Positions 1 to 13,122 of a stretch of DNA of 34,278 nucleotides are shown here, in pieces. The DNA is taken from assembly GCA_021793405.1 (NCBI GenBank), contig JAJYSV010000044.1:1-34278 (forward strand), written 5' to 3'. Below the pieces are notes generated by a model. It was not told where the DNA came from and did no database searches. It was given only the letters and a program-made list of their open reading frames with translations. The position numbers and the translations under genes are program-made. The number at the start of each line of letters is the position of its first letter. Position 1 is the stretch's first letter. This stretch comes from Acidobacteriota bacterium. GTDB taxonomy: Bacteria; Acidobacteriota; Terriglobia; Terriglobales; Acidobacteriaceae.

Positions 1-18
1 AACATGTGGAAATGACCT

Positions 19-119
19 GCCACCGTTAAGGTGGCTCAATCAAACCGGGGCCGCGTTAGCGACCCCGCACCAGCCGCTTTGAGCGGCTCACACAATAAAG
101 CCCCCGGCTCTGCCGGGGG
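19..119. repeat. Cluster of four GC-rich hairpins (REP-like palindromic repeat)
   Basis: Four consecutive palindromes with short loops are read directly: GCCACC/GGTGGC around GTTAA (19-35); a 9-pair stem with one C:A mismatch around GTTA (46-67); AGCCGCT/AGCGGCT around TTG (72-88); and CCCCCGGC/GCCGGGGG around TCT (101-119). Linkers are 10-12 nt or shorter. The stems differ in sequence, so this is a structural array and not a tandem repeat. It abuts the first recognisable codons of the cas3 fragment. It may be a dispersed intergenic repetitive element, a structured RNA, or the end of an unidentified mobile element. Its copy number in the genome is unknown. Confidence 0.7.
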
Positions 120-495
120 ATACTTACCAAGTCGGCGGATGGGACTGTCAATGCGCTCCGCAAACAATTGCTCAAGGATTGTTTGAAGGCGGCGGAAAAG
201 CCGCCAGGCCTGTTCACGCTCACGGCACCCACCGGCAGTGGCAAAACTTTGTCCTCGCTTGCTTTCGCCTTGCAGCACGTCGTTCATCACAACGCAAACT
301 TCGATAGAGACGATCCCCAATGCTTCCGGCGAATCATTGTCGTAATTCCCTACACCAGCATTATTGAGCAAACGGCAAGAGTGTATCGCGAAGACCTTTT
401 TGAATTAGAATTCGGCGAAGATTATGTACTGGAGCATCACAGCGCCCTGGCGCCGCGCGAACGTGAAGAAGACCTAGAACGCGACGCCGAGGAAA
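120..495 (+). pseudogene. cas3: cas3 helicase fragment (type I CRISPR-Cas), truncated at both ends
   Basis: This frame is open from 99 and encodes the start of a Cas3 superfamily-2 helicase domain: a DGTVNALRKQLLKDC segment, Walker A/motif I TAPTGSGKT (about 228-254), the motif Ia-like VVIPYTSIIEQTA and the EHHSAL segment typical of Cas3 proteins. Similarity stops near 495, after a DLERDAEES segment. From there the same frame reads out of phase through recombinase DNA to a stop at 612-614. The HD nuclease domain, the DEAD-box motif II and the second RecA domain are all missing, so no active protein can be made. No other cas gene and no CRISPR array is visible. Assignment to a type I subtype is not possible from this piece, although the spacing resembles I-C-like Cas3. 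Confidence 0.8.
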
Positions 496-531
496 GTTGG
501 CCGCAAGTCCGATGCTCTCAAGCTGTACCAG

Positions 532-1437
532 TTGCGCAAGGCCGATGCGATGGCAGGGCGAAAGTTGCCGGAACTCAGAAACAAGAAAGCTCTAACGCTT
601 TCCGATCTTATTAACGATGCTCTGGAATTTGTCGCCGACCACAAGGATAAGAGGAATTACATCTCGAAAGCCGCGATCGTCAGGAAAGACCTGGGTGCGC
701 TGCCCGCCGCTGATATCACTCCGCAACAAATTGATCGCTGGTTGAGTTCGCATTGCACAACGCCCGCAACCACGAACCGATATAAAGCGTTTCTGTCCCT
801 GTGCTATCGCGAGGGCATGCGAAATGGCAAAGTGAATGTGAATCCCGCTCGGCTTGTCCGGCATCGCCGCGAGCCGGCGGGTCGTCTGCGATTCCTGAGT
901 CGCGACGAGTACAACAAGCTGCATGAGGTGATCGCCCTCCGATTTCCAGAACACGTGGCTGAATTTGTGGTGAGCGTACACACGGGTATGCGATTGTCGG
1001 AACAATACAGTTGTACATGGTCGATGATCCATCTCGACCGGCGTCTGATACGCACCAACAAGGCAAAAAGTAATCGCAAGGTGATTCTGGGTCGCACGAT
1101 TCATCTCAACAACGATGCGATAGCGGCGATCGAGTCCCTCAAGCATCCGGGGCAGAAGCCCGGGGATCCGGTGTTTCCGCGTGAGGGAGAGAAGGAGAGA
1201 TTCGATAATCGATCTTGGTTTCTCCCCTGTCTGCAGGAAGCCGGGATTGAGGAGTATGTTTGGCACGGCAACCGGCACACCTTTTGTTCATGGCTGGCCA
1301 TGGCCGGAGCCTCCATCAAGGAGATCCAGGAAGCAACTGGGCACAAGACGATCACGATGGCTGCACGATACAGTCATCTCTCGCCGGAGCATCGACAGTC
1401 GGTCGTGGAGCGGATCGCCGGAGCGGTCACAGCGTAA
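532..1437 (+). CDS. Tyrosine recombinase/phage integrase, N-terminally truncated
   Basis: Tyrosine site-specific recombinase (phage integrase family). The core-binding SAM-like domain (from ALTLSDLINDALEFV) and the catalytic domain are present, with the catalytic Arg in THTGMRLSE-like context (VHTGMRLSE), a His-x-x-Arg box in WHGNRHTF, the second His in TGHK and the tyrosine in ARYSHLSP. Family similarity begins upstream of the first start codons, at about 490 (VGRKSDALKLYQLRKADAM), directly after the cas3 junction, and the frame is closed by a TAG at 475-477. The arm-type DNA-binding N-terminus is therefore lost. Possible starts are TTG 532 or ATG 550; neither has a convincing ribosome binding site. 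The catalytic residues look intact, but the protein is probably impaired in recognising arm sites. The gene ends 83 bp from the 3' end of tRNA-Leu(CAA), the classic position for a tRNA-integrating element. Confidence 0.85.
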   Translation: MRKADAMAGRKLPELRNKKALTLSDLINDALEFVADHKDKRNYISKAAIVRKDLGALPAADITPQQIDRWLSSHCTTPATTNRYKAFLSLCYREGMRNGKVNVNPARLVRHRREPAGRLRFLSRDEYNKLHEVIALRFPEHVAEFVVSVHTGMRLSEQYSCTWSMIHLDRRLIRTNKAKSNRKVILGRTIHLNNDAIAAIESLKHPGQKPGDPVFPREGEKERFDNRSWFLPCLQEAGIEEYVWHGNRHTFCSWLAMAGASIKEIQEATGHKTITMAARYSHLSPEHRQSVVERIAGAVTA

Positions 1438-1440
1438 ACC

Positions 1441-1464
1441 AACATGCACCAGAACATGCACCAG
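1441..1464. repeat. 12-bp tandem direct repeat, two copies
   Basis: The unit AACATGCACCAG occurs twice head to tail, directly after the recombinase stop codon and just before the terminator hairpin. It lies where an attachment-site or recombinase-binding repeat could be expected in a tRNA-targeting element, but two copies alone do not prove that. Confidence 0.6.
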
Positions 1465-1469
1465 ACAAA

Positions 1470-1497
1470 AATGGCCACTCCGCAAGGAGTGGCCATT
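1470..1497. terminator. Strong stem-loop terminator after the recombinase
   Basis: A perfect 12-bp stem AATGGCCACTCC/GGAGTGGCCATT closes on a GCAA tetraloop. It is preceded by an A-run and followed by TTTTC, so it could terminate in both directions: the recombinase from the left and tRNA-Leu read-through from the right. Confidence 0.8.
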
Positions 1498-1520
1498 TTC
1501 TTGTAAGTCCTTTATTATCC

Positions 1521-1607
1521 TGGTGCCGGGAGGGGGGGTCGAACCCCCATGACCCGAAGGTCGGCGGATTTTGAGTCCGCTGCGTCTGCCAGTTCCGCCA
1601 TCCCGGC
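1521..1607 (-). tRNA. tRNA-Leu, anticodon CAA
   Basis: Read on the minus strand, an 87-nt class II tRNA folds from GCCGGGA (5' acceptor) to TCCCGGC-A-CCA, with the CCA encoded. The anticodon stem GCGGA/TCCGC encloses loop CTCAAAA, giving anticodon CAA, which reads the leucine codon UUG. The variable arm (ACCTTCGGGT) and the T-loop GGTTCGACC are present. The 3' end faces the recombinase at 532-1437, so the gene is the likely attachment site of the element to its left. Confidence 0.95.
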
Positions 1608-1626
1608 TTGGGGGGTGACAGAGTCG

Positions 1627-1632
1627 ATTCTA
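1627..1632 (-). promoter_or_regulatory. Candidate -10 box of tRNA-Leu(CAA)
   Basis: Minus-strand TAGAAT lies 20 bp upstream of the mature tRNA 5' end, a suitable distance for a short leader. A matching -35 box is not obvious, so this is a weak call. Confidence 0.35.
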
Positions 1633-1812
1633 ACCGAAGATGCGGGGTGCTTCCCAGGAAACTGCTGATCTGGAAAAGTGTAGATTCGTGACGGCGATGG
1701 CAGCACCTCACCTCTCGATCCTCGGGATTCTCCGCCATGACCGCTCGCAATGGCGCGCGACCGCAGTGCAGCATGGCCGATGTGGCATCCAACACGCTCA
1801 CCACAAATTCCA

Positions 1813-2409
1813 TTACGGCTGCTTGTGTTCCGCAGCCATGCGATCCAGGGCAAGGTTCAGTTCCAGCACATTCACGCGAGGCTCGCCCAGAAATCCAAAC
1901 TGTCTTGACTCGATGTGGGCCCGCAGCAACTGCTCCAATTGATCCTGTGGCAGGTCACGAACGTGCGCAATCTCGGCAACCTGGTATTCGGCGGCAGCCA
2001 CGGTGATGTCCGGGTCCAATCCCGAGCCGGAGGTGGTTATCAGATCAATCGGCACATCTGTCTGCGCGTTCCCATAATTGGCTTCACGAGTATGCCAAGC
2101 CTGCACGCTCTGCGCCACGCGCGCGATCAGACTCGCGTTCGTCGGACCAAGATTCGAGCCGGAAGAGTTGGCTGCATCATACCCGATACCAGCGGCGGAT
2201 GGTCGGCTGTTAAAGTAGCCCGGACCGGTGAACGGTTGTCCGATCAGTTTGGAACCGATGACGACTCCATCTTTCATGATCAGTTGGCCGTCGGCCTTCG
2301 CCGGCATCAAAATGTGTGCCAGAGCTGTTATTCCAAGCGGGTAGCCGAGTCCGAGAAGAATCGTCGTTACAAGAGTGAATAAACAAGCTGTGATCAGTTG
2401 CTTCCTCAT
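1813..2409 (-). CDS. kdpC: K+-transporting P-type ATPase subunit C (KdpC)
   Basis: KdpC is the single-span accessory subunit of the KdpFABC high-affinity potassium pump and helps stabilise the complex and ATP use by KdpB. The 198-aa protein has one N-terminal membrane segment (about residues 6-32, with the YPLGITA motif), then the characteristic GSKLIGQPF, YFNSRPSAAG, GSNLGPTN and TSGSGLDPDI blocks of the periplasmic domain. Length is normal for the family. The start ATG is 9 bp downstream of the kdpB stop, with a GAGGA-like ribosome site between them, so it is the last gene of the kdpFABC operon. About 205 bp of non-coding DNA separate its end from tRNA-Leu(CAA). Confidence 0.97.
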   Translation of the reverse strand: MRKQLITACLFTLVTTILLGLGYPLGITALAHILMPAKADGQLIMKDGVVIGSKLIGQPFTGPGYFNSRPSAAGIGYDAANSSGSNLGPTNASLIARVAQSVQAWHTREANYGNAQTDVPIDLITTSGSGLDPDITVAAAEYQVAEIAHVRDLPQDQLEQLLRAHIESRQFGFLGEPRVNVLELNLALDRMAAEHKQP

Positions 2410-2418
2410 ATAGTTTCC

Positions 2419-4467
2419 TCAAATCAGGTGCATGGCCGTGATCGCCATGTCGATGAGCTTGATGCCCAGGAATGGAAGAACAATCCCTCCGAGGCCGTAG
2501 ATCAGCAGGTTGTTCCGCAGCAGGATTTCCGCGCTCATCGGCTTGTACTTCACGCCTCGCAATGCAAGCGGAATGAGCGCAACAATAATTAGCGCGTTGA
2601 AGATGACAGCAGACAAAATGGCTGATTGCGGCGTGCGCAGGTGCATGATGTTCAGCGCACCGAGAACTGGGAACGTCGCTGCAAACATAGCCGGAAGAAT
2701 GGCAAAGTATTTGGCGACATCGTTGGCGATGGAGAATGTGGTCAGCGCTCCGCGTGTCATCAAAAGTTGCTTGCCGATTTCGACAATTTCGATCAACTTG
2801 GTCGGGTTGGAATCGAGGTCGACCATGTTCCCAGCTTCCTTGGCGGCCTGGGTGCCAGTATTCATTGCGACACCGACATCGGCTTGCGCCAGTGCAGGAG
2901 CGTCGTTGGTCCCGTCGCCCGTCATCGCGACTAGTTTGCCTTCACTTTGCTCTCGCCGGATCAGGTCCATCTTGTCTTTCGGTTTCGCCTCCGCAAGAAA
3001 ATCGTCCACGCCGGCTTCGCGAGCGATTGCCGCCGCAGTCAGAGGATTGTCTCCCGTAATCATGATGGTGCGGATGCCCATGGCACGAAGTTGCGCGAAG
3101 CGTTCGCGCATGCCGCCTTTCACAATGTCTTTCAGATGGATCGTTCCCAACGCGCGATTGTTTTCCGCAACCACCAGCGGCGTGCCTCCGCTGCGCGCAA
3201 TCCCTTCCACATCCGCTCCCACCTCATCGGCCATTGTGCCGCCGGATTCCTTGATAAATTTTGCAATCGAATCGGCTGCTCCTTTGCGGATCAGGCGGCC
3301 GTCCACGTTGACGCCGGACATCCGCGTCGTCGCGCTGAAAGGGACAAACTCCGCGTGTATCGTGGTAAGATCGCGCCCGCGCAGTCCATAAGTTTCTTTG
3401 GCAAGCACGACGATTGACCGGCCCTCTGGAGTCTCGTCCGCGAGCGAAGAAAGTTGTGCGGCATCGGCAAGTTGATCCTTGGTCACTCCCGGCGCGGGTA
3501 GAAACTCCGTGGCCTGTCGATTACCGAAGGTAATCGTTCCGGTCTTGTCCAGCAGGAGCGTATTCACGTCGCCGGCAGCTTCTACCGCGCGGCCGGACAT
3601 CGCCAGTACGTTGTGCTGTACCAGCCGGTCCATGCCAGCTATGCCGATGGCGGAAAGCAAGCCGCCGATCGTCGTCGGAATCAGACAAACCAGCAGCGAT
3701 ACCAGGACGAACACCGTTTGCGGCGAGTGCGAATAGATGGCGATGGGCTGTAGCGTGACCACGGCCAGCAAGAAAATGATGGTCAGTCCAGCCAGCAGGA
3801 TGTTCAGCGCAATTTCGTTCGGTGTCTTCTGCCGCTCAGCGCCTTCGACTAACGCAATCATCTTATCGATGAAGGTCTCGCCGGGGTTGGATGTAATCCG
3901 AATTTTAATTTGGTCCGACAGTACCCGCGTGCCTCCTGTAACCGCTGAACGGTCGCCGCCCGATTCTCGAATCACGGGAGCGGACTCGCCCGTGATGGCG
4001 GACTCGTCGACCGATGCCACCCCATCGATGATTTCTCCGTCGCCCGGAATCATTTCGCCCGCGGATACGACGACAATGTTGCCAGAGCAGAGTTTCGAAC
4101 TGGGGACCTGCTCAATGCCACCTTTTTCAGTGAGGCGGTTCGCCATCGTCTCCGACTTGGCTCGGCGTAGTGCATCGGCTTGCGCTTTGCCGCGCCCTTC
4201 TGCCATGGCCTCGGCGAAGTTTGCGAATAGTACCGTGAACCACAGCCACAGCGTGATCTGAAGATCGAAAATCCAGGATGATCCATGTCCCCACAGATTC
4301 TCCACCAGCAGCACAGATGTTATGACGCTGCCAATTTCGACAACGAACATCACCGGGTTCTTCATCATGTTCATCGGGTTTAGCTTGGATAAAGAATCGA
4401 CTAGCGCGCGCGTGGCAATTTGCGCGTCCCAGATCGACCTTTGGTGAGTGTTTTTTATTTTCGCCAT
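2419..4467 (-). CDS. kdpB: K+-transporting P-type ATPase subunit B (KdpB)
   Basis: KdpB is the catalytic P-type ATPase subunit that hydrolyses ATP to drive K+ import through KdpA in the inner membrane. The protein has 682 residues, the same as the E. coli subunit. The actuator-domain TGES motif is at 159-162, and its Ser162 corresponds to the inhibitory phosphorylation site known in E. coli. The membrane motif [11 protein letters not shown] is at 261-271, the phosphorylated aspartate in DKTGT is D307, and the hinge motif [11 protein letters not shown] is downstream. All catalytic motifs are intact. The start is preceded by a GGAGAAAG ribosome site 26 bp after kdpA. Long antisense frames across it are shadows of its codon composition. 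Confidence 0.98.
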
Positions 4468-4493
4468 GTTGCTTTCTCCAAACGATGCTTGCC

Positions 4494-6269
4494 CTAGAAA
4501 GTTTTTCCTGCATACAGCAGAAGATGTTCAAGAATTGGACCCAGAGTGAGCGCCGGAAAGAAGGTAAGCGCGCCAACAATCACAATCACTCCCACCAGGA
4601 GAATCGTGAATAAGGGTGTTGTCACCGGAAACGTCCCCGCGGACGCCGGAGCGATTTTCTTTCGGGCCAGGTTCCCAGCCACCGCCAACATGGGCACCAT
4701 CATCAGAAAGCGCCCACTCAACATCACGAACGCCAGCGTCAGATTGAAATAATTCGTATTCGCGTTCAGTCCTGCGAAGGCCGAGCCGTTGTTCGCTGCT
4801 GTAGAGGTAAAGGCATACAGAATCTCCGAGAGCCCATGCGGGCCTGTGTTTGCCAGACTGCTGAGTCCCAGGTGCGGCAACAAGACCGTCACCCCGGTGA
4901 AGCACAAGATCAGCAGCGGGAAGATGAGGATGTACAACATGCACATCTTGATGTCATAGGCTTCGATCTTCTTGCCCAGATACTCCGGCGTTCGGCCGAC
5001 CATCAGTCCGGCGATGAAGACCGACAAAACGACCATGATCAACATGCCGTAGAGTCCCGAACCGACGCCGCCGAAAATGACTTCTCCCAGCATCATATTG
5101 ACCAGCGGAACCATCCCTCCGAGCGGAGTAAACGAGTCATGCATTCCGTTCACGGCGCCGCAGCTTGTGTCGGTGGTCGCAGTGGCGAACAGCGCGGAAT
5201 TGGCAACTCCAAAGCGAACTTCCTTGCCTTCCATGTTGCCGCCTGCCTGCGTTGCCGACACCTGCTGCGCCGCTCCATGCATCAGGGGATTGCCGCGCGC
5301 CTCCGCCCAATATGCCGTGGTGACACCGGCAAAAAACAGAATTCCCATCGCCGCGAACACCGCCCATCCGTGCAGCGGAGAATTGGTCATGCGCCCCATC
5401 GTGACGGTCAGTCCCGCGGGGATGGCAAAGATGGCGAGCATCTCCAATAGGTTGGAAAATGGTGTTGGGTTCTCAAACGGATGCGCGCTGTTGGTGTTGA
5501 AAAAACCGCCGCCATTCGTTCCCAGCTCTTTGATGGCTTCCTGCGAAGCAACCGGACCTTGTGCGATCGTCTGGGTGGTAATGGTTTGTGTGGTGGATTT
5601 GCCGGACGCATCCTGGCTTACAACCTTCTGCGATTCGAGTAGGTGGGCGGTGTCGTAGGGACGCAGGTTTTGCACCACTCCCTGCGACACAAGCGCCAGC
5701 GCAAGCACAATGGAAATGGGCACCAGCACCCACAGAATCGCCCGCGTGGTATCGACCCAGAAATTCCCCAACGTATCTCGCTCGCGCCGGCTTATGCCGC
5801 GAACCAAGGCAATGGCCAACGCGATCCCTACCGCCGCCGAGGTGAAGTTATGATAGGCGAGTCCAGCCATCTGGGTCAGGTAGCTCATCGTCGTTTCGGG
5901 GACATACGACTGCCAGTTGGTGTTCGTAGTAAAGGACGCAGCGGTGTTCAGAGCCAGCGCCGCAGGTACAGCCGGCCAATGCTGCGGATTCAACGGAAGC
6001 CATTGCTGGACGCGCTCGATCAGATAAACGAGCAGCATGGACACAGCGCTGAAGAACAGCATCGCGATCGCGTATTCGGTCCAGCGCATCTCCTTGTCGG
6101 CTTCGACGCCGGTCAACCTGTAGAGAAGGCGCTCGATTGGAGCCAGCACGGGATCGAGAAATGTCTTGCGCCGTTCAAAGACATTTGCCATGTAGATGCC
6201 GAGCGGTCGCGCGATCAGCACGATCAACAGAAAATAGAAGCCAATCTGAAACCATCCATTTGCGGTCAT
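4494..6269 (-). CDS. kdpA: K+-transporting ATPase subunit A (KdpA)
   Basis: KdpA is the channel-like K+-binding subunit, related to Trk/Ktr transporters with four selectivity-filter repeats. The 591-aa protein, slightly longer than the E. coli homologue, has about ten membrane segments and recognisable filter regions: [44 protein letters not shown] and [12 protein letters not shown]. The N-terminus [20 protein letters not shown] is the usual first span. The ATG lies 2 bp beyond the kdpF stop, implying translational coupling. Together with KdpB, KdpC and KdpF it forms the pump induced under potassium limitation. Confidence 0.98.
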
Positions 6270-6271
6270 GG

Positions 6272-6361
6272 TTAGAATTTCTCCGGTCGCAACAGGGCAA
6301 ATACAAGATAGACCAGTAAAATTGCCGAGACGAGAAGCAGAACTGTGGTTTCGATATGCAT
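6272..6361 (-). CDS. kdpF: K+-transporting ATPase small subunit F (KdpF), 29 aa
   Basis: This short gene encodes 29 residues with one hydrophobic span and the family-typical C-terminal ending LLRPEKF. The middle reads LLLVSAILLVYLVFALL. KdpF is a lipid-like stabiliser of the KdpFABC complex, and 29 aa equals the E. coli length. It begins 4 bp downstream of the preceding 28-aa gene and ends 2 bp before kdpA, so it is part of one transcript. Confidence 0.93.
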   Translation of the reverse strand: MHIETTVLLLVSAILLVYLVFALLRPEKF

Positions 6362-6365
6362 GCGA

Positions 6366-6452
6366 TTACCTCAAACGCTCGCAACCGAGCGTATATCCAA
6401 TGGACACTGCAAAAAATGCCAGGGTGCCGATAACCATCCAGACATCTGTCAT
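6366..6452 (-). CDS. 28-aa single-span membrane micropeptide of the kdp operon
   Basis: A 28-codon frame starts at an ATG preceded by a very good GAGGAG ribosome site 9 bp upstream and ends 4 bp before kdpF. The product begins MTDVWMVIGTLAFF, has one membrane span (about residues 5-22) and ends with a short basic, acidic and Cys-containing tail (GCERLR). Its ATG overlaps the stop of the 178-aa upstream frame as ATGA, a typical coupling arrangement. From memory, similar short hydrophobic peptides ending in Cys-Glu/Asp-Arg-Leu occur just upstream of kdpF in other bacteria, usually unannotated. A role as an extra Kdp accessory subunit is inference. The start and coding nature are well supported by context. 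Confidence 0.72.
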   Translation of the reverse strand: MTDVWMVIGTLAFFAVSIGYTLGCERLR

Positions 6453-6985
6453 AAATATTTCTCCTCAAGCCCGCACCAGGAACCCGTCGCCTGCCCAAAC
6501 CGGCAGCCAAGACCCGTTCCCGCCATGCTTTGTTGCGAGACCACTTCGCTTTTGCCAGATGGATGAAAATCAAGCTGGCTCAAAAAGCTCCGGCGCCATT
6601 CCTCAAATCCGTTGAAGCCCTTCGCGAGCAGAGAGGGTGCTGTCACGGTAGATTCGTTCAAAATTTGCAATGTGCTCCTGAACAGCACCTGTGGATCTGA
6701 CCTGTGATCGGCACGAGTGGCCGGCGAAACCTCGCACGGTCTGTTGCCACTGCTCGATTGCTCGTATGCCGACACAGTGAAAACAGTTGAAACCAATAAG
6801 CCAAAGCCGAGATAGCGTGGCGCCATTTTGTATATGTGGGAGGAATCGATCTGGCCCAGAGGATGGACCATGTTGTGCCCGCCTGTCTTCAGCGCTTTCT
6901 GGGTTCGCGCAAAACCGCGATAACAAAATACAAGAAACCCGATTGCTGCGATCCCAATTGCGCCGCTGAGAAGTCCGTCTATCAT
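6449..6985 (-). CDS. Hypothetical two-span membrane protein between kdpE and kdpF
   Basis: This 178-aa frame starts MIDGLLSGAIGIAAIGFLVF, with a GAGG-type ribosome site. It has a first membrane span at about residues 3-21, a basic loop (RGFARTQKALKTGGH), a second span at about 57-72 (GFGLLVSTVFTVSAYE) and a hydrophilic, low-complexity-like tail. The stop overlaps the ATG of the next micropeptide (ATGA), which argues that it is translated. I do not recognise the family. An in-frame ATG at 7030 would add 15 residues but has no better ribosome site. The tail may not be under selection: if the true gene is shorter or decayed, only the membrane part matters. Confidence 0.5.
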   Translation of the reverse strand: MIDGLLSGAIGIAAIGFLVFCYRGFARTQKALKTGGHNMVHPLGQIDSSHIYKMAPRYLGFGLLVSTVFTVSAYEQSSSGNRPCEVSPATRADHRSDPQVLFRSTLQILNESTVTAPSLLAKGFNGFEEWRRSFLSQLDFHPSGKSEVVSQQSMAGTGLGCRFGQATGSWCGLEEKYL

Positions 6986-7033
6986 CGTACTGCCTCGGCG
7001 TAAATTCCCGCCTCGAACAGTTGGCATCACAGC

Positions 7034-7072
7034 GGATAAAAAGTGCGTAAGAAGATCGTAAAAAAGTTATAA
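7034..7072 (-). promoter_or_regulatory. Candidate KdpE operator: three phased T-rich direct repeats
   Basis: On the minus strand, reading toward the kdp structural genes, the repeats CTTTTTTACG, CTTCTTACG and CTTTTTATCC start at 7066, 54 and 43 (that is 7066, 7054 and 7043), spaced 12 and 11 bp, about one helical turn. OmpR/PhoB-family regulators such as KdpE bind direct repeats with this spacing. The first part, TTATAACTTTTTTAC, closely resembles the T-rich KdpE-protected region of the E. coli kdp promoter as I recall it. The site overlaps the kdpE stop codon and precedes the 6985 start by about 50-85 bp. No clear -10 box was identified. Confidence 0.5.
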
Positions 7073-7813
7073 GGACGAGGCGGGCTGAACCCCTTCTGGA
7101 ACAAAACGGTATCCAACCCAGGGCTCAGTCAGGATATAGTGCGGTTTTTCGCCCGGTTCAATCTTCCGGCGGAGCTGCGCAATCAGGACGCGCAATGATT
7201 CTGGCTGATCTGCGTTATAGCCGCCCCACACCGCTACCGTCAGCGTGCGTCGGGTGACCACACGGTCGGGATAGTGCGACATGGCATGAAGCAGATCAAA
7301 TTCTTTCGGTGTCAGATGGACTTCAGCCCCTCGCACAAAGACCTGCCGCGAAGCCGGATCGATACGAAAATCCCCCAGCGTCGCCTCGGCATTTTTGTCT
7401 TTCGAAGCTGCATGGCTTGATCGCCGCAGCAACGCGCGGATTCTAGCCAGAAGCTCATTGATTTGAAATGGCTTGGTCACGTAGTCGTCGGCTCCCGCGT
7501 CGAGCGCCTCGACTTTCATCTTCTCCTGGTTGCGCACGGACAACACCAGGATTGGAACATTGGACTGCTTTCGTATGGCGCGGCAAAGCTCCACGCCGTC
7601 CACCTTGGGCATGGCCAGATCGGTGATGATCAGTTCGGCTGGCCAATCGATCAATATGGCCAGCGCGGATTCTCCGTCCGCCGCGGATCGAACCTGGTAT
7701 CCCTGCGCGGTACATGCCATGGAGACGACACGGGTGATTTGCGGCTCGTCATCGACGATCAGGATCTTCGCTGGGTCTGTACTGTCGCGCGGTGGTGTTG
7801 CTTGATCGGTCAT
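7067..7813 (-). CDS. kdpE: Response regulator KdpE (OmpR family)
   Basis: KdpE is the transcription activator of kdpFABC, phosphorylated by KdpD. The 248-aa protein has a receiver domain with acidic pair DD (residues 21-22), phosphoacceptor D65 in ITDLAMPKVDG, and the conserved Lys in YVTKPFQ. A winged-helix DNA-binding domain follows, with LTPKEFDLLHAMSHYPDRVVTRRTL and a C-terminal recognition region ending PWVGYRF. It is about 20 residues longer than the E. coli homologue at the N-terminus. The start is 6 bp after the KdpD N-terminal gene stop, so the two are co-transcribed. The candidate operator overlaps its end. Confidence 0.95.
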   Translation of the reverse strand: MTDQATPPRDSTDPAKILIVDDEPQITRVVSMACTAQGYQVRSAADGESALAILIDWPAELIITDLAMPKVDGVELCRAIRKQSNVPILVLSVRNQEKMKVEALDAGADDYVTKPFQINELLARIRALLRRSSHAASKDKNAEATLGDFRIDPASRQVFVRGAEVHLTPKEFDLLHAMSHYPDRVVTRRTLTVAVWGGYNADQPESLRVLIAQLRRKIEPGEKPHYILTEPWVGYRFVPEGVQPASSL

Positions 7814-7819
7814 GTCCGC

Positions 7820-8968
7820 TCAATGCTGCTCTTGCGTCACAATATGGACATCCACATGGGGTGCTTCACGAAGCAGCCGTTGAATTGCCATGAAGTAGCG
7901 ATAGTTGCCCCAGCCGCGAACCGCCGACCGGCCCAGGATGATCTGGGTGATGCGGTGTTCTCGGACAAATTCCCCCAGAGTGCTCGCAACTGTTCCGCCC
8001 TGCAAACGAAAAATCCGGGCCGAAAGGTTTTCCGCAAAGCGCAGATTGGCGGCCAGATTCCGGCTCTTCTCTTCACTGGCGTCGTCGGGCAAGTCGACAT
8101 GCAAAATATAAAATTCGGCGTCCATGCCTTCGGCCATGCGCGCGCCGCGCGCAATCAGCTGCTGCGAGGCCGGATTCGAACTGACGCACACCGCCACTCG
8201 CTCCTGGACCATCCAATCCTGGCCAAGCTGCTTGCGGCGCAGGTAGGCGTCCAAGTTTTGATCGACAGCATGGGTGACGCGCTTCAGCGCCAGCTCCCGC
8301 AGCGCGAGGAGATTTCCCCGGCGGAAGAAATTGGCGAGAGATCGCTCAATGCGTTCGGCAGGATAAATGTCCCCGCGGCGCATCCGGGTTTGCAATGCTT
8401 CGGGAGTAACGTCGACCAGAACTACTTCGTCCGCCCTGCCCAGCACCCAGTCCGGCACTGTTTCACGTACAGTAATGCCCGTAATGCTCTGCACCGTGGG
8501 AGCCACGCTTTCGACGTGCTGTACGTTCAGCGCGGAAAGGACATCGATGCGGTTCTGCAGCAGCTCCAGCACATCCTCATAGCGCTTTTCGTGCTTGCTT
8601 CCCGGAATGTTTGTGTGTGCCAGCTCATCGATCACCACCACCGAAGGCTTTCTGGCCAGTACGGCTTCCAGGTCGAGCTCTTCAAAAAATGTGCCCTTAT
8701 ATTCCACCCGCCGAGGCGGAACCGCCTCCATCTGGGCGGCCAGCTCAATTACGCGAGGCCGTTGATGCGTCTCAACGAATCCGATCACCACATCTTCACC
8801 GCGTTTACTGCGCCGGATGGCTTCGCTCAGCATGTTGAAGGTTTTGCCGACGCCGGGCGCGTAGCCCAGAAAGACCTTGAAAATCCCCGCCGTCTTTTCC
8901 GGAGCGGCTGTTTCCAGCCATTGCTCAGGCGTCTTTATCGGCTTTACGTTTCCGGCTTGTGGGGTCAT
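7820..8968 (-). CDS. kdpD: KdpD N-terminal sensor half (KdpD domain + USP domain), stand-alone
   Basis: The 382-aa soluble protein equals only the cytoplasmic N-terminal part of KdpD. It has the KdpD ATP-binding domain with Walker A GYAPGVGKT (residues 35-43), ETHQRP and the Walker B-like VVVIDELAHTN, followed by a universal-stress-protein-like domain (about 250-375) ending in a GRSAVRGWGNY nucleotide-binding-like motif and VDVHIVTQEQH. It stops exactly where E. coli KdpD would enter the membrane. The kinase half lies in the neighbouring, oppositely oriented gene at 8996-10462. In E. coli this region binds ATP and, through its USP domain, c-di-AMP or other signals in some species. Here it presumably acts in trans on the kinase half. 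N-only KdpD proteins are also known in cyanobacteria (Anabaena). Confidence 0.93.
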   Translation of the reverse strand: MTPQAGNVKPIKTPEQWLETAAPEKTAGIFKVFLGYAPGVGKTFNMLSEAIRRSKRGEDVVIGFVETHQRPRVIELAAQMEAVPPRRVEYKGTFFEELDLEAVLARKPSVVVIDELAHTNIPGSKHEKRYEDVLELLQNRIDVLSALNVQHVESVAPTVQSITGITVRETVPDWVLGRADEVVLVDVTPEALQTRMRRGDIYPAERIERSLANFFRRGNLLALRELALKRVTHAVDQNLDAYLRRKQLGQDWMVQERVAVCVSSNPASQQLIARGARMAEGMDAEFYILHVDLPDDASEEKSRNLAANLRFAENLSARIFRLQGGTVASTLGEFVREHRITQIILGRSAVRGWGNYRYFMAIQRLLREAPHVDVHIVTQEQH

Positions 8969-8995
8969 GGCTTAAGCGACCTGAGTAGAATTGTA

Positions 8996-10462
8996 ATGGT
9001 GTTGCAGCATAGAACATCTCCGATGACCCGTTACGCGGCGTCCGCGCTCGTTGTCGCCCTGATCGTCTGGGTATATTTTTCCCTGCTGCATGTCAATCAC
9101 ACGACGGTCGCTCTTACTTTATTGTTATACGTCCTATTTATTGCGGGGCGATGGGGACTTTCCAACGCCATCTTCACTTCAATCCTTTCCACCCTGGCCA
9201 TGAATTTTTTCTTTCTGCCCCCGGTTGGAAAATTCACTGTCGCCGATCCTCAGAACTGGGTTTCTCTGGGCGCGTTCCTCATTACCGCAATCCTGTCCAG
9301 CCGGCTTTCCGACCGTGCCCGGGATGAAGCCAAAGAGGCGAAAAGTCAACGAATCGAAATGGAGCGCCTGTACGACTTTAGCAGGCAGTTGCTCGCGACC
9401 GACAATATCCTCGATCTGTTGAACTCCATTCCCAAGATCATTACGGCGACGTTTTTTACGGAGGGTACTGCTCTACTGGTGACTGCCAGAAGCCGCATCT
9501 ACCATTCCGGTAGAAGCAGCGAGCGGATCAGCGATGAGATGCTCCGTGCCGCTTCCCACGAACGCGACATTCAGAGAAATGATGAGACGGGAATAACTCT
9601 GGTCCCGCTCATGATGGGCGTGCGTCCCATTGGCGCGCTGGGGATTTTGGGAAAAAGGCCGTCGAGGCAGAGTTTAGAGGCGTTGGGCAGCATGGTGGCC
9701 ATTGCCGTGGAACGAGCCGGTGCCGTCGAGCAACTGGGGAGAACCGAAGCCGCCCGGGAAAGTGAACAGATTCGCAGCGCGCTGCTGGATTCTGTGACTC
9801 ATGAACTGCGAACCCCTCTCACTTCGATCATGGGGGCCGTCAGCAGCCTGCGCTCACAACTGCAGCTGACAGAGCAGGAGCGAAACGAGCTGCTTTTCAT
9901 CATTGACGAGGAAAGTGGACGCCTGAACCGTTTGATTGAAGAAGCTGTGGAAATGGCGCAGTTGGATGCCCACGAGGTGCAGTTGGACCTGCAACTCCAC
10001 CCGATCAAGGAGCTTGTCGATCTATCGGTTAAGAATGCTCAGGAAGTCGTTGCCGCCCACCCCATCAGCGTGCGTCTAGCGGACGACCTGCAACCTGTCC
10101 TGTTCGACTTGCGCATGATCGAAAAAGTCCTCCATCATCTGCTGGAAAACGCCGCAAAATACTCACCTCCCGGCAGCCCTGTCTGCATCAGCGCGGAACA
10201 GACTACGGACGCGCTTGTCGTCAGCGTGGCCGATCGTGGAGTTGGAATCGGGATGCTGGAAAAAAGCTTTATCTTCGACAAGTTCTACCGCGGTCCAGAA
10301 CAACGCTACCAGGTCCACGGAACCGGTATGGGACTGGCCATCGCCAAAGCCATCGTGGAAGCGCATGGCGGCAAAATCACCGTAACCAGTCAGGTCGGAC
10401 ACGGTTCCGTCTTCTCGTTTGAATTGCCGCTTCAGGCACGGCTGTCGGAACTGCGTGATTGA
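8996..10462 (+). CDS. kdpD: KdpD C-terminal half: membrane histidine kinase (DUF4118-GAF-HisKA-HATPase)
   Basis: The 488-aa product contains four closely spaced membrane spans (about residues 13-31, 37-53, 57-76, 87-103; the DUF4118 module of KdpD), a GAF-like region (about 125-245), a HisKA domain with phosphoacceptor H269 in DSVTHELRTP, and a HATPase with N-box LLENAAKYS, G1 DRGVGIG and G2 GTGMGLAIAK. It lacks the KdpD/USP sensor domain, which is encoded divergently 27 bp away. The two products together add up to about the length of a complete KdpD. ATG 8996 is preferred. ATG 9023 is an alternative and neither has a strong ribosome site. The frame is open far upstream, but that part is antisense to the KdpD N-half gene and not coding. 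Confidence 0.92.
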   Translation: MVLQHRTSPMTRYAASALVVALIVWVYFSLLHVNHTTVALTLLLYVLFIAGRWGLSNAIFTSILSTLAMNFFFLPPVGKFTVADPQNWVSLGAFLITAILSSRLSDRARDEAKEAKSQRIEMERLYDFSRQLLATDNILDLLNSIPKIITATFFTEGTALLVTARSRIYHSGRSSERISDEMLRAASHERDIQRNDETGITLVPLMMGVRPIGALGILGKRPSRQSLEALGSMVAIAVERAGAVEQLGRTEAARESEQIRSALLDSVTHELRTPLTSIMGAVSSLRSQLQLTEQERNELLFIIDEESGRLNRLIEEAVEMAQLDAHEVQLDLQLHPIKELVDLSVKNAQEVVAAHPISVRLADDLQPVLFDLRMIEKVLHHLLENAAKYSPPGSPVCISAEQTTDALVVSVADRGVGIGMLEKSFIFDKFYRGPEQRYQVHGTGMGLAIAKAIVEAHGGKITVTSQVGHGSVFSFELPLQARLSELRD

Positions 10463-10542
10463 CCGGCACACCAGTCCATCGGCGGTTGGCCGAGGAACCA
10501 TGGGACTGTTAGTCTGAAGGCTCGACCGCGGGCTGCCGAAGA

Positions 10543-10556
10543 GGGGAACGTTCCCC
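10543..10556. promoter_or_regulatory. Perfect 14-bp palindrome upstream of the osmC-family gene
   Basis: GGGGAACGTTCCCC is a perfect palindrome without a loop, ending 48 bp before the ATG of the OsmC-family gene. Its size and position fit a dimeric repressor or activator operator. It is preceded by GAA and followed by ATCG, with no T-run, so it is not a terminator for the kinase gene. The regulator is unknown. Confidence 0.5.
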
Positions 10557-10604
10557 ATCGTACCTGCATCCAAATTTTAGGATCACAACCAAGGAGAACT
10601 ACAT

Positions 10605-11030
10605 ATGCAACGCAAAGCAAGCGCAGTCTGGCACGGCACGTTGAAAGAAGGCAAAGGTACCATTTCTACCGAAAGCGGAGTGCTGAAAGATACCGCATAC
10701 TCCTTTCATACGCGGTTTGAAGATGGTAAGGGAACCAACCCGGAAGAGTTGATTGCCGCCGCTCACGCCGGCTGTTTCACCATGGCGCTAAGCGGCCAAC
10801 TGACCAATGCGAAGCTGACACCCGAGTCGCTGGAGACCACTGCGGACGTTACGCTCGAAATGCTCCAGGGGGGTCCGACCGTCACCAAGATCCATCTGAT
10901 CACGCGCGCAAAAGTGCCGGGCGCCAGCAAAGAGGCCTTTGCGACAGCGGCGAATGAGGCAAAGATCAATTGCCCCATCTCGCGCCTGCTAAAAGCAGCC
11001 GAAATCACTCTGGATGCCCAATTAACCTGA
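10605..11030 (+). CDS. osmC: OsmC-family peroxiredoxin-like protein
   Basis: OsmC/Ohr-family proteins are small cytoplasmic dimers that reduce organic or lipid hydroperoxides with two cysteines. This 141-aa protein has both expected Cys contexts: C57 in [12 protein letters not shown] and C123 in INCPISRLL. The N-terminal [16 protein letters not shown] and [12 protein letters not shown] blocks are those of the OsmC (YP_-type OsmC, not Ohr) branch. The ATG has an excellent AAGGAG ribosome site. It follows the KdpD kinase half by 142 bp with a palindrome between, so it probably has its own promoter. Osmotic-stress-linked expression would suit its place beside kdp but is not shown. Confidence 0.93.
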
Positions 11031-11058
11031 GTCTGGCCATCGTCCCGCGCCGGTCTTC

Positions 11059-11088
11059 GAGCAACTCTCCGAACACGGGGAGTTGCTC
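11059..11088 (+). terminator. Stem-loop terminator candidate after the osmC-family gene
   Basis: GAGCAACTC (11059-11067) pairs with GAGTTGCTC (11080-11088) around a 12-nt loop, 29 bp after the stop codon. The T-tract is poor (ACATTTCG), so termination may be partial or the hairpin may stabilise the mRNA end. Confidence 0.55.
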
Positions 11089-11154
11089 ACATTTCGTCGC
11101 TGTAGCCGTTCGTGGTCGGAACGGCTGCGTCAGCCCAGTTCTCCCTCTACACCT

Positions 11155-11397
11155 TCAAGCACTGTGTGTGCGGATGAACTCTCGCAATTGTTGATGAATC
11201 TTCAAGGCCTGCTGTGCTCCCCCATCCAGCAGGCCGATCCACTCCTTCACCGGTCCCTCTATCTCTGCTGTGTTCAGCAGATACCCAGCTTGCAGCACAA
11301 TTTCCAGCGCATTGCTCAGGTCATGCATCAGTCGGCGTATCTCCGCGGAAAGTTCCGGGGGAATCCTGGCGGTATTTGTCAGGGAAGAGTTCGTCAT
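11155..11397 (-). CDS. Stand-alone H-box (DHp-like) small protein, 80 aa
   Basis: The 80-aa product contains an RLMHDLSNALEIVLQAGYLL helix (about residues 22-41) that matches the H-box of the HD-x-(S/N)-N type of histidine kinase dimerisation domains (compare HDLNNLLTVI in hybrid kinases). A second helix, LLDGGAQQALKIHQQLREFI, is in the position of the second DHp helix. There is no ATPase domain and no sensor domain. A GAAAGG ribosome site precedes the ATG. It could be a phosphotransfer or decoy dimerisation module, but the histidine may simply be structural. The gene is monocistronic, convergent with the osmC-family gene. Confidence 0.65.
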   Translation of the reverse strand: MTNSSLTNTARIPPELSAEIRRLMHDLSNALEIVLQAGYLLNTAEIEGPVKEWIGLLDGGAQQALKIHQQLREFIRTHSA

Positions 11398-11540
11398 GCC
11401 GCAGCCTTTCTTTATGGCGTCTACTGGATTTCCATGCGCGAATCGCGATCAGGCTCTGAATTAGGGTGAAATCTCAGGATACTCGCGCCCGTCGCGATTG
11501 CAAATCAGCCGGATACTCATTCCCTACTCGGCCCCAAATG

Positions 11541-11568
11541 TTGACAGCATCTGCCGTCTTTGTAAGAG
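11541..11568 (+). promoter_or_regulatory. Candidate promoter of tRNA-Leu(CAG)
   Basis: A consensus -35 TTGACA (11541-11546) is followed after 16 bp by TAAGAG (11563-11568), a modest -10. The tRNA begins about 50 bp further on, which allows a processed leader. Confidence 0.4.
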
Positions 11569-11617
11569 TAAGAACTGCCGCCGCTTTCGCGGTGGCCAGC
11601 TAGCCCCTGGTATCCAG

Positions 11618-11704
11618 GCCGAAGTGGCGGAATTGGCAGACGCGCATGGTTCAGGTCCATGTACTCGCAAGGGTGTGGGGGTTCGAGTCCCTTCTTCGGC
11701 ACCA
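11618..11704 (+). tRNA. tRNA-Leu, anticodon CAG
   Basis: An 87-nt class II tRNA runs from GCCGAAG to CTTCGGC-A-CCA with encoded CCA. The anticodon stem CATGG/CCATG surrounds loop TTCAGGT, giving anticodon CAG for the leucine codon CUG. The T-loop GTTCGAGTC and a long variable arm are present. Its 3' end points away from the kdp block, toward a repeat-bearing stretch with small unknown genes. Confidence 0.95.
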
Positions 11705-11775
11705 AACAAGCGGTAAATTATTGAAAACAAGGCAAATGCTGTAGCGAAAGAGTTTATAATAAGTCGGTCGCGCCG

Positions 11776-11851
11776 CGTTGTATCGTAAAAAATCCCTTAT
11801 ATGCCAAATTTGAGGGATTTTACTTACAACGGCACTTTCGACTTACAACGG
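11776..11851. repeat. Inverted repeat with terminator-like core and two 11-bp direct repeats
   Basis: The core AAAATCCCT (11789-11797) pairs with AGGGATTTT (11813-11821) around a 15-nt loop and can terminate tRNA transcription. The pairing extends outward: CGTTGTA (11776-11782) matches the end of TTACAACG. The outer arm is repeated directly: ACTTACAACGG at 11822-11832 and again at 11841-11851, 19 bp apart. Such nesting could mark the edge of an integrated element or simply be an elaborate terminator. Confidence 0.55.
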
Positions 11852-11912
11852 GCTTTTTCAATGATTTAGATATTCGGGTGATCCCGGTCGGGTTCCTTGC
11901 AGTCAGGTGTCT

Positions 11913-12470
11913 ATGCCGAGGAAAAGAAAAAGGCCATCGAAACCTAAGCATGCAGGTCCGCCACCGATTGAGAGTCCGCCAAGCTCACGATTGAATCTGG
12001 GGAAGTACATCCTAGCCGGGATCGCGGTCCTCGGATTTCTGATTGCCCTACTCACCTTATTACCGCGCATTACCGTCAATGCTTCAGAGCCGGTCGATCC
12101 GACTAACTCCCTGTCGGCTTTATTTACGATTACGAACAGCGGGTTCATTCCTCTACGAAAAGTATCGGCTTCTCTTGGGCTCGGCGAAATACAGCCCGTC
12201 GGGAAACCGCTCGACCCAGATGTGGGATTTGATAATCCAAGCGGACTCGCCCGGACTGCTTGGAGCAATCATTCGCTCGATATGGATGATAGCTACACGA
12301 TCAGTCCATTTGAAATGATCCACGCGTACGGGGACAGACAAGCCGCGATTGAGATAATTATTCAATACAATCCTTGGCTTCTGCCTTGGACCGTCACGAG
12401 ACGATTCCGATTCGAGACACGCAGGCAGAGCAACGGAAGGCTGTATTGGTATTCAATACCGGCGAAATAG
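11913..12470 (+). CDS. Hypothetical single-span membrane protein
   Basis: The 185-aa product starts with a very basic, Pro-rich cytoplasmic segment (PRKRKRPSKPKHAGPPP), followed by one membrane span at about residues 32-51 (YILAGIAVLGFLIALLTLLP) and a roughly 130-residue outer domain ending SNGRLYWYSIPAK. The outer part looks beta-rich (TNSLSALFTITNSGFIPLRKVSASLGL reads like an Ig-like or DUF-type sandwich strand pattern). GTG 11907 in frame just upstream is an alternative start. I do not recognise the family. It is convergent with the next small gene, 28 bp away. Confidence 0.6.
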   Translation: MPRKRKRPSKPKHAGPPPIESPPSSRLNLGKYILAGIAVLGFLIALLTLLPRITVNASEPVDPTNSLSALFTITNSGFIPLRKVSASLGLGEIQPVGKPLDPDVGFDNPSGLARTAWSNHSLDMDDSYTISPFEMIHAYGDRQAAIEIIIQYNPWLLPWTVTRRFRFETRRQSNGRLYWYSIPAK

Positions 12471-12498
12471 AAACTGCCATCTAACGCCCGCCCGATAT

Positions 12499-12669
12499 TT
12501 ACTTCTTCTTCTTAACGAGTGTGCCGGGAATCGCGATATAGGTTGCGATGTCGTCGTTATTCTTGTCTAGGAAGTGAATCGTCTTGGAGTCTGTCGAAAT
12601 GACATAAGCGTCGGCTTGGATTTCAATTTCCTTACCGTCTTTCGGAGGAGTGATCACATAAGTATTCAT
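12499..12669 (-). CDS. Hypothetical small cytosolic protein, 56 aa
   Basis: From ATG 12669 the product is MNTYVITPPKDGKEIEIQAD followed by a strand-rich stretch (AYVISTDSKTIHFLD, ATYIAIPGTLV) and a terminal KKKK. An AAAGGAAA ribosome site lies 10 bp upstream, which favours this start over the ATG at 12690. The alternation of short beta strands suggests a small barrel or a transcript-encoded unit of an island. No family recognised. Confidence 0.55.
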   Translation of the reverse strand: MNTYVITPPKDGKEIEIQADAYVISTDSKTIHFLDKNNDDIATYIAIPGTLVKKKK

Positions 12670-12689
12670 CTGTAGATTTCCTTTCAACA

Positions 12690-13122
12690 AACATTTTGAA
12701 AACCCACTTTAAGTATTTGCTTGGCGCCCCGAAGAATCAAGCACGAATCACCTCGGCAAAACAACAAGGGGCGAGAGACTGTTGCGCCTGTGTCTTCTCT
12801 CGGGGGCTGCTCGTAGGATCGCTCGATCCCGGAAACGCGATTCACTTTAGTAAATGCCCCAATTCGGTCAGCGGGTTCCCGTGGCTGTCGCTGGTCATTA
12901 AGCTGTACGTATGTGATCAGCAAGAAATCGCGATGGTTTGTAGCGAAACTAAAGAGGTTACGCATTTCCGATTCCAACACCCTTGTTGATTGGGTGGTTT
13001 TGAACAGTTCAATTTGGTTGATGACTGCGATCCGGCACATCACCCGACGCTCGCGCACCCGATTACGCGTCTCTCCATTGACCTGGCGCCTAAATTATCC
13101 ACGGTGTTTTTCAGCGTGATAA
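12690..13122. other. 433-bp stretch without recognisable gene
   Basis: A 124-codon frame exists on the minus strand (12684-13058), but it has no ribosome site, no recognisable motif and an overlap with the upstream end of the small gene at 12499-12669. I see no transposase remnant, tRNA fragment or strong hairpin. The stretch separates the tRNA-adjacent patch from the rhamnoside locus. Confidence 0.5.

What the first reader, a model, noticed from the sequence alone, without database searches (positions are those of the whole stretch)
7820..10462. KdpD split into a sensor gene and a kinase gene, inverted relative to each other
KdpD-N (KdpD+USP domains, 382 aa, minus strand) and KdpD-C (four spans, GAF, HisKA, HATPase, 488 aa, plus strand) meet head to head with 27 bp between their starts. 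Their sum is about the length of intact KdpD and the break falls exactly at the cytoplasm-membrane boundary. Signal sensing and kinase activity would then be joined in trans. With so short a gap the promoters must lie inside the coding ends, which allows unequal dosing of the halves.
Basis: partly seen in the sequence, partly recalled or inferred. Interest (0 to 1): 0.65.

Follow-up and report, generated by a model that had tools for sequence, protein, structure and literature searches.

The report
Split potassium sensor, genes head-to-head
An acidobacterium carries the potassium sensor KdpD as two separate proteins whose genes point away from each other, an arrangement of a known kind shared by many members of its family, and here it seems to work without the second messenger known to switch such a short sensor.

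Summary
Observation confirmed. KdpD-N (382 aa, minus) and a DUF4118-HisKA-HATPase kinase (488 aa, plus) meet head to head, 27 bp between ATGs (30 if the kinase starts at GTG 8999). No other KdpD domain was found in the genome. The layout is conserved: 89 of 94 loci with this KdpD-N type. The split itself is published: PMC11018627 names Acidobacteriota among the phyla where it is commonest; D. radiodurans has separate halves; Alicyclobacillus has split kdpD in divergent operons (title seen). The 'sensor half' is better read as the atypical serine kinase that phosphorylates KdpB Ser162; its key residues (Trp39 is Phe) and the target serine are there. A -10 box sits 4-8 nt before the kinase start in 62 of 89 loci, so that mRNA is probably leaderless. 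Beyond what I read: no diadenylate cyclase was found in this genome or 7 others of its genus, so the c-di-AMP switch published for a short KdpD seems unavailable, whereas split KdpD-N elsewhere in the phylum nearly always has a cyclase beside it in the genome (57 of 60 rows); and a second KdpD-N type follows a different (HAMP-PAS) kinase. Coupling of the halves is plausible, unproven; rate covariation mildly favours it.

The parts
7820..8968 (-). KdpD-N: KdpD (Walker A/B atypical serine kinase) domain plus Usp domain, 382 aa
   Evidence: PF02702 E 1.2e-89, Usp 23.5 bits; NF038185 387.7 bits, below its cut-off 550; catalytic residues
8969..8995 (.). 27-bp gap between the two ATG starts
8986..8991 (+). 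-10 box TAGAAT of the kinase gene; TANAAT upstream of the kinase start in 67 of 89 loci
8996..10462 (+). DUF4118 / HisKA / HATPase histidine kinase (C half of KdpD), 488 aa from ATG 8996 or 487 aa from GTG 8999
   Evidence: H269, N385, D413 and G-box glycines kept in 38 of 38 rows
7067..7813 (-). KdpE response regulator, directly behind KdpD-N (6 bp between the genes)
   Evidence: Response_reg and Trans_reg_C; receiver Asp65 kept in 43 of 43 rows
6272..6361 (-). kdpF
   Evidence: read; peptide ending RPEKF
4494..6269 (-). kdpA
   Evidence: PF03814 match
2419..4467 (-). kdpB, with the serine-kinase target Ser162 in TGES
1813..2409 (-). kdpC
   Evidence: PF02669 E 1e-68

Best explanation
This is a two-chain KdpD of a known class (serine-kinase chain plus histidine-kinase chain), in a head-to-head gene order that is typical of the window's family. 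KdpD-N is a soluble atypical serine kinase that shuts the K+ pump by phosphorylating KdpB Ser162. The membrane kinase encoded next door phosphorylates KdpE when K+ is low and switches kdpFABC on. The two genes are transcribed apart, the kinase from a promoter whose -10 box sits just before its start codon (probably leaderless mRNA), KdpD-N presumably together with KdpE. Shown here: gene layout, its conservation, kept active-site residues, -10 box. Inferred from E. coli and D. geothermalis work: the serine phosphorylation. Inferred only: the leaderless mRNA, the KdpD-N-KdpE operon, and that the two chains also influence each other.
For: Walker A glycines and GKT, Walker B D109-E110 and R190 are kept in 46 of 46 divergent-type KdpD-N; W39 is Y or F in 45 of 46. 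TGES is present in 100 of 101 KdpB sequences of the surveyed loci, window Ser at 162. HK H-box His and N-box Asn 38 of 38, KdpE Asp 43 of 43. Head to head in 89 of 94 loci. TANAAT in the gap on the kinase strand in 31 of 46 loci against 2.5 expected, 2 against 2.4 on the other strand. PMC11018627 (abstract, sections 7 and 8, first part of section 9 read): the isolated E. coli KdpD domain phosphorylates KdpB; [quoted passage not shown]
Against: I saw no biochemistry on an acidobacterial KdpD-N. The switch published for a short KdpD is c-di-AMP, and no diadenylate cyclase was found in this genome, so what turns the serine kinase on is unknown. W39, which with R190 binds adenine in E. coli, is Phe here. 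NF038185 (the non-kinase KdpD model) is hit at 387.7 of 550 bits. KdpD-N is not behind the pump genes, where that paper places it in three other species and sees a reason of dosage. No recognisable -35 was found.
Confidence: 0.75

Rival explanations
1. One reading: the halves form one sensor in trans. KdpD-N docks on the membrane kinase and tunes its kinase/phosphatase balance; the serine-kinase role is secondary or lost.
For: Partial rate correlation of KdpD-N with HK 0.41 (se 0.10), against HK-KdpE 0.48 and KdpA-KdpB 0.58, in 34 loci with five proteins; without the pump proteins 0.72 (se 0.05) in 66 loci. Both halves are one clade each. Two full-length KdpD (L147, L150) nest in the split clade in both trees, i.e. 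halves were fused again; one origin of all full-length KdpD is rejected on the N half (AU p 1e-5). E. coli: N domain interacts with the C domain, and truncated KdpD cannot repress at high K+ (PMC2714519, passages). Type B KdpD-N lies directly behind a different kinase in 5 of 5 loci read.
Against: In the first 18 loci with all five proteins KdpD-N to HK was 0.09 (se 0.11) and KdpD-N to KdpB 0.50, so the signal depends on the sample; neighbouring genes can covary for other reasons; KdpD-N to KdpA is as high (0.38). Outside this family the two chains are mostly encoded apart. The serine-kinase residues are kept.
Confidence: 0.35
2. A recent inversion cut an intact, E. coli-like kdpD in two; the halves are decaying or improvised.
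For: The break lies at the domain border and full-length KdpD exists in other Acidobacteriota. On the N half alone a union with full-length KdpD is not rejected (AU p 0.43).
Against: HK half with full-length KdpD as one clade is rejected (AU p 0.0004). The layout is in 89 loci and the catalytic residues are kept in the rows checked. Many other Acidobacteriota have the two-chain state in other gene orders.
Confidence: 0.06
3. KdpD-N answers to c-di-AMP as in D. geothermalis, the messenger coming from an unrecognised synthase.
For: The Ser244 equivalent and the C-x-S start of the published motif are kept. 63 of 115 type A genomes do have a cyclase, and so do the genomes of 57 of 60 split KdpD-N rows outside the family.
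Against: No cyclase in the own genome (PF02457; TIGR00159) nor in 7 others of the genus (completeness 73-98%), with 11 of 14 control genomes ringing. The Y271 equivalent is His here, S246 is Asn and N249 is Ser. Caution: Y271 to His tracks one deep split and differs in 0 of 3 independent pairs; DAC-positive relatives also lack the full motif (Ala at N249 in 41 of 41).
Confidence: 0.1

Closest known systems
Two-chain KdpD (KdpD/Usp serine-kinase chain + TM/GAF/DHpCA histidine-kinase chain), PMC11018627
   Same: Same two chains, same domain border, KdpE present; Acidobacteriota named as one of the commonest homes
   Different: Gene order in Acidobacteriota is not described in the sections I read or in the passages found for 'Acidobacteri', 'divergent', 'opposite' and 'orientation'; the paper links short KdpD with diadenylate cyclase, not found here
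Alicyclobacillus acidocaldarius kdp region (Schleussinger et al. 2006; title only, seen in a reference list)
   Different: PMC11018627 says the serine-kinase chain there lies downstream of the pump; here it lies with KdpE upstream of the pump and directly head to head with the kinase gene
Deinococcus radiodurans kdp (PMC5716572, passages read)
   Same: KdpD-N and the kinase (C half) on separate genes in opposite operons
   Different: There kdpD-N is in the operon with kdpBAC and the response regulator goes with the kinase; here the regulator goes with KdpD-N
NCBIfam NF038185 KdpD_non_kinase
   Same: Aligns over 12-379 of KdpD-N, 387.7 bits
   Different: Curated cut-off of 550 not reached

Membership tests
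Two-chain (split) KdpD | Stand-alone KdpD/Usp protein without histidine-kinase domains | tested here: met
   PF02702 and Usp only, 382 aa; Usp 0.5 bit under its cut-off
Two-chain (split) KdpD | Separate kinase with TM (DUF4118), GAF and HisKA/HATPase | tested here: inconclusive
   DUF4118, HisKA, HATPase_c met; GAF only E 0.12, though NF007793 aligns through that stretch
Two-chain (split) KdpD | No full-length KdpD in the genome | tested here: met
   One PF02702 match in the genome
Two-chain (split) KdpD | KdpE and KdpFABC present | tested here: met
   none of the NCBIfam equivalog cut-offs shown for the regulator was reached, KdpE model 177.6 of 325 bits, so 'KdpE' rests on its place
KdpD atypical serine kinase | Walker A, Walker B D-E, adenine pair W39/R190 | tested here: inconclusive
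   Walker A, D109-E110, R190 kept; W39 is Phe here and Tyr or Phe in 45 of 46; full-length KdpD of the phylum also has Tyr or Phe there in 19 of 20 rows
KdpD atypical serine kinase | Target KdpB E161-S162 | tested here: met
   TGES with Ser162
KdpD atypical serine kinase | Phosphorylates KdpB | not testable with these tools
   needs protein
c-di-AMP-regulated short KdpD | Diadenylate cyclase in the genome | tested here: not met
   own genome 0 (PF02457; TIGR00159); genus 0 of 8 (TIGR00159)
c-di-AMP-regulated short KdpD | Motif (A/G/C)xSxSxxN and Y/F in the Usp domain (PMC8214093, passages) | tested here: not met
   C-V-S kept; S246 Asn, N249 Ser, Y271 His. The motif comes from Firmicutes and DAC-positive relatives lack it too, so this is weak

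The most novel reading that the evidence does not exclude
KdpD-N is a transferable regulatory module. In members of this family that have lost c-di-AMP synthesis its serine-kinase activity is gated by a partner membrane histidine kinase in trans: the DUF4118 kinase in the head-to-head type A, a HAMP-PAS kinase in the tandem type B. A K+ pump would thus be shut by a serine kinase whose switch is a separate two-component sensor.
Probability: 0.18. Interest if true: 0.6.

Novelty: new variant of a known kind. Interest (0 to 1): 0.36.

Why it matters
The split puts the two jobs of KdpD on genes that can be deleted one at a time, and the missing diadenylate cyclase removes the one input published (in what I read) for a short KdpD. 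That makes the open question of what gates the serine kinase directly testable. The repeated fusions and the second kinase partner suggest that KdpD-N is swapped between kinases in evolution.

Tried and rejected
Gene fusion in G036 (872-aa frame): rejected, it is an antisense frame over the kinase gene. Recent fission of a full-length KdpD: rejected for the kinase half, undecided for the N half. c-di-AMP motif decay after cyclase loss: the Tyr to His change looks striking (Tyr 41 of 41 DAC-positive, His 56 of 66 DAC-negative), but the tree needs only 4 changes of cyclase status and none of 3 independent pairs differ, so it is in essence one lineage event. Many other columns segregate as well, so I give it no weight. 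'KdpD-N co-varies with KdpB and not with the kinase': seen in 18 loci, not upheld in 34. Rfam: at E up to 1 only two tRNAs in window 1-13000, no riboswitch such as ydaO. The simple sigma-70 scan found nothing in 8700-9300. A KdpD-N promoter inside the kinase coding end: TANAAT 26 times over 88 loci at 90-119 nt upstream against 2.3 expected, but the control was a mononucleotide shuffle and the hexamer may follow from conserved codons, so it stays a hint.

Rows dropped: 7 near-identical loci in the first two trees, and in the kinase tree also matches under 380 aligned residues or without the membrane part; L122 and L089 before the kinase test; L161, L169, L123, L173, the 8 paralogues and every second divergent row before the N-half test; near-copies before the rate comparison (73 to 66 and 19 to 18 loci, 35 to 34). 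In the layout count the 30 short loci were left out and one locus per genome was kept. The family cyclase count leaves out one weak match (G424), and G359 (E 9.8e-4) was counted as lacking the gene. On checking I withdrew two statements of my own: that type B never occurs beside a cyclase (note), since G410 and G419, both cyclase-positive, have a second copy of 42-43% identity; and that type B always abuts its kinase (84 nt or more lie between in L032). Against that, the 57 of 60 count was added.

Full report
What is there. KdpD-N is PF02702 plus Usp; the kinase is DUF4118 plus HisKA plus HATPase_c. They align to positions 10-375 and 407-884 of the full-length KdpD model, so the border is just before the membrane domain. 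A KdpE-like regulator follows KdpD-N after 6 bp, and kdpF, kdpA, kdpB and kdpC follow on the same strand. The genome has one KdpD domain in all.

How common. In an even draw of 396 genomes of the phylum, 142 have a KdpD domain over cut-off; open frames of about 370-460 aa (split) and about 900 aa or more (full length) are the commonest, with some of 550-715 aa. I fetched 94 stretches around KdpD domains with short frames (93 loci) or of the family (G036), not all 142, and 20 around full-length ones. In the window's own family KdpD-N mostly sits head to head with the kinase and KdpE follows KdpD-N; elsewhere in the phylum KdpD-N mostly sits after kdpABC, and the DUF4118 kinase, where seen, is next to KdpE except in two weak matches, L089 and L122. 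In the family draw of 200 genomes, 163 have a KdpD-N match, and 115 have the window's type, which I call type A (57% identity or more). In 94 type A loci (window, 35 of the phylum draw, 10 named loci of which L151 and L158 are from one MAG, 48 of the family draw), 89 are head to head. Of the 5 misses, L227, L236 and L251 have 1046, 2 and 6 bases of contig left upstream, while L223 and L231 have 2 kb and show no such kinase. Pump genes lie downstream on the same strand within the fetched stretch in 38 of 55 loci, counted by eye (21 of 35; two more end at a contig edge, one has the pump on the other strand; 17 of 20).

The gap. On the kinase strand, TANAAT occurs in the gap in 31 of 46 loci (2.5 expected from dinucleotide shuffles); on the KdpD-N strand in 2 (2.4 expected). 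In the larger set it is in 67 of 89; the distance from the box to the first in-frame start is 4, 6, 7 or 8 nt in 62 of the 67, and 17 of the other 22 loci have a looser TAnnnT 6 or 7 nt before a start, for which I ran no control. A -10 box so close to the start means that transcription begins at or near the start codon, hence a leaderless kinase mRNA (inference). In the window the box is 8986-8991; ATG 8996 is 4 nt away and in-frame GTG 8999 is 7 nt away, the commonest distances being 6 and 7. With a 17-nt spacer the -35 region would fall on 8963-8968, over the KdpD-N start codon, but no good -35 is there. The listings of five paper searches (an open-access library only) showed no paper on this gene order or promoter; I opened only the papers named here.

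What each half does. In E. coli the isolated KdpD domain phosphorylates KdpB Ser162 and needs Walker A, D109, E110, and W39 with R190 (PMC11018627, section 7 read). All but W39 are kept in 46 of 46 divergent KdpD-N; W39 is Tyr or Phe in 45 and Phe in the window. Ser162 is present in the window's KdpB. The kinase and KdpE keep their phosphorylation sites. So each half looks complete for its own job.

What switches KdpD-N. The D. geothermalis short KdpD is turned on by c-di-AMP (PMC11018627, section 8 read). Here PF02457 finds no cyclase in the own genome while 11 of 14 control genomes ring. In the phylum draw 305 of 396 have one. In the family draw 90 of 200 match TIGR00159, own genus 0 of 8. 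Type A KdpD-N is in 115 family genomes, 63 with and 52 without cyclase; 40 of the 52 are listed as at least 90% complete (counted by eye). Outside the family, 57 of 60 split KdpD-N rows with known status come from genomes with a cyclase (status). So the head-to-head layout does not depend on the cyclase, and many genomes of this family keep a short KdpD without the published switch. Of 19 full-length rows of the phylum 6 come from cyclase-less genomes, where the fused K+-sensing part could do the switching. The Usp pocket differs from the c-di-AMP motif, but that argument is weak.

Do the halves talk? Rate covariation over 34 loci gives partial r 0.41 (se 0.10) for KdpD-N with the kinase, 0.38 with KdpA, 0.22 with KdpB and 0.24 with KdpE, against 0.48 for kinase-KdpE and 0.58 for KdpA-KdpB; linear and rank versions give 0.39 for KdpD-N with the kinase. 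Without the pump it is 0.72 in 66 loci, but a first run with the pump on 18 loci gave 0.09. I read this as mild, unstable support. In E. coli the N domain interacts with the C domain and truncated KdpD cannot repress at high K+ (PMC2714519, passages read).

Origin. The head-to-head KdpD-N and kinase each form one clade (support 100). Kinase with 18 full-length KdpD as one clade is rejected (p 0.0004); for KdpD-N it is not (p 0.43). Two full-length KdpD, in G063 and G346, nest in the split clade in both trees, and one origin of all full-length KdpD is rejected on the N half (p 1e-5): fusion has happened again. All trees are quick searches.

Against what is known. Split KdpD in Acidobacteriota is in print as a class (PMC11018627, Discussion). 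Split kdpD in divergent operons is in print for Alicyclobacillus (title only), and opposite operons for D. radiodurans (PMC5716572, passages). What I did not find in those readings is this gene order, the start-hugging promoter, the cyclase-less state and the type B partner. I therefore call it a new variant of a known kind, of modest interest.

Noticed in passing
L032, L043, L047, L067, L072 (type B KdpD-N): A second KdpD-N type in the family (40-43% identical to the window's) lies directly behind a HAMP-PAS-HATPase kinase without DUF4118, same strand, in 5 of 5 loci read (HisKA found in 3). Of 48 family genomes with only a non-type-A match 45 lack a cyclase, and the other 3 have weak matches; but cyclase-positive G410 and G419 carry a second copy of 42-43% identity beside type A, not read. 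Of 9 type B genomes 8 have KdpA, elsewhere in the genome, and G394 has none.
   Followed up: partly
L056, L073, L089, L091, L092, L099, L102, L121: Tandem KdpD-N pairs in which one copy belongs to a divergent clade of paralogues. The Walker B Glu is Gly or Pro in 7 KdpD-N rows of the survey (6 outside the family, 1 in it); I did not check that these are the same copies.
   Followed up: no
L147 (G063), L150 (G346): Full-length KdpD genes nested in the split clade in both trees, i.e. independent re-fusions.
   Followed up: yes
L162, L168, L172 (Actinomycetota): Kinase-KdpE pair divergent from KdpD-N with about 150-200 bp between first aligned residues: another head-to-head split in another phylum.
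   Followed up: no
window 6366-6452 minus: 28-aa membrane-like ORF ending GCERLR directly before kdpF; a crude pattern G[CS]x[RK][LIV] in short ORFs upstream of kdpA matches in 32 of 95 loci, no control run.
   Followed up: partly
G000:C125:1643-1957 minus: A second, weaker DUF4118 match in the genome (36.7 bits, frame 451 aa); two more fall below the cut-off.
   Followed up: no
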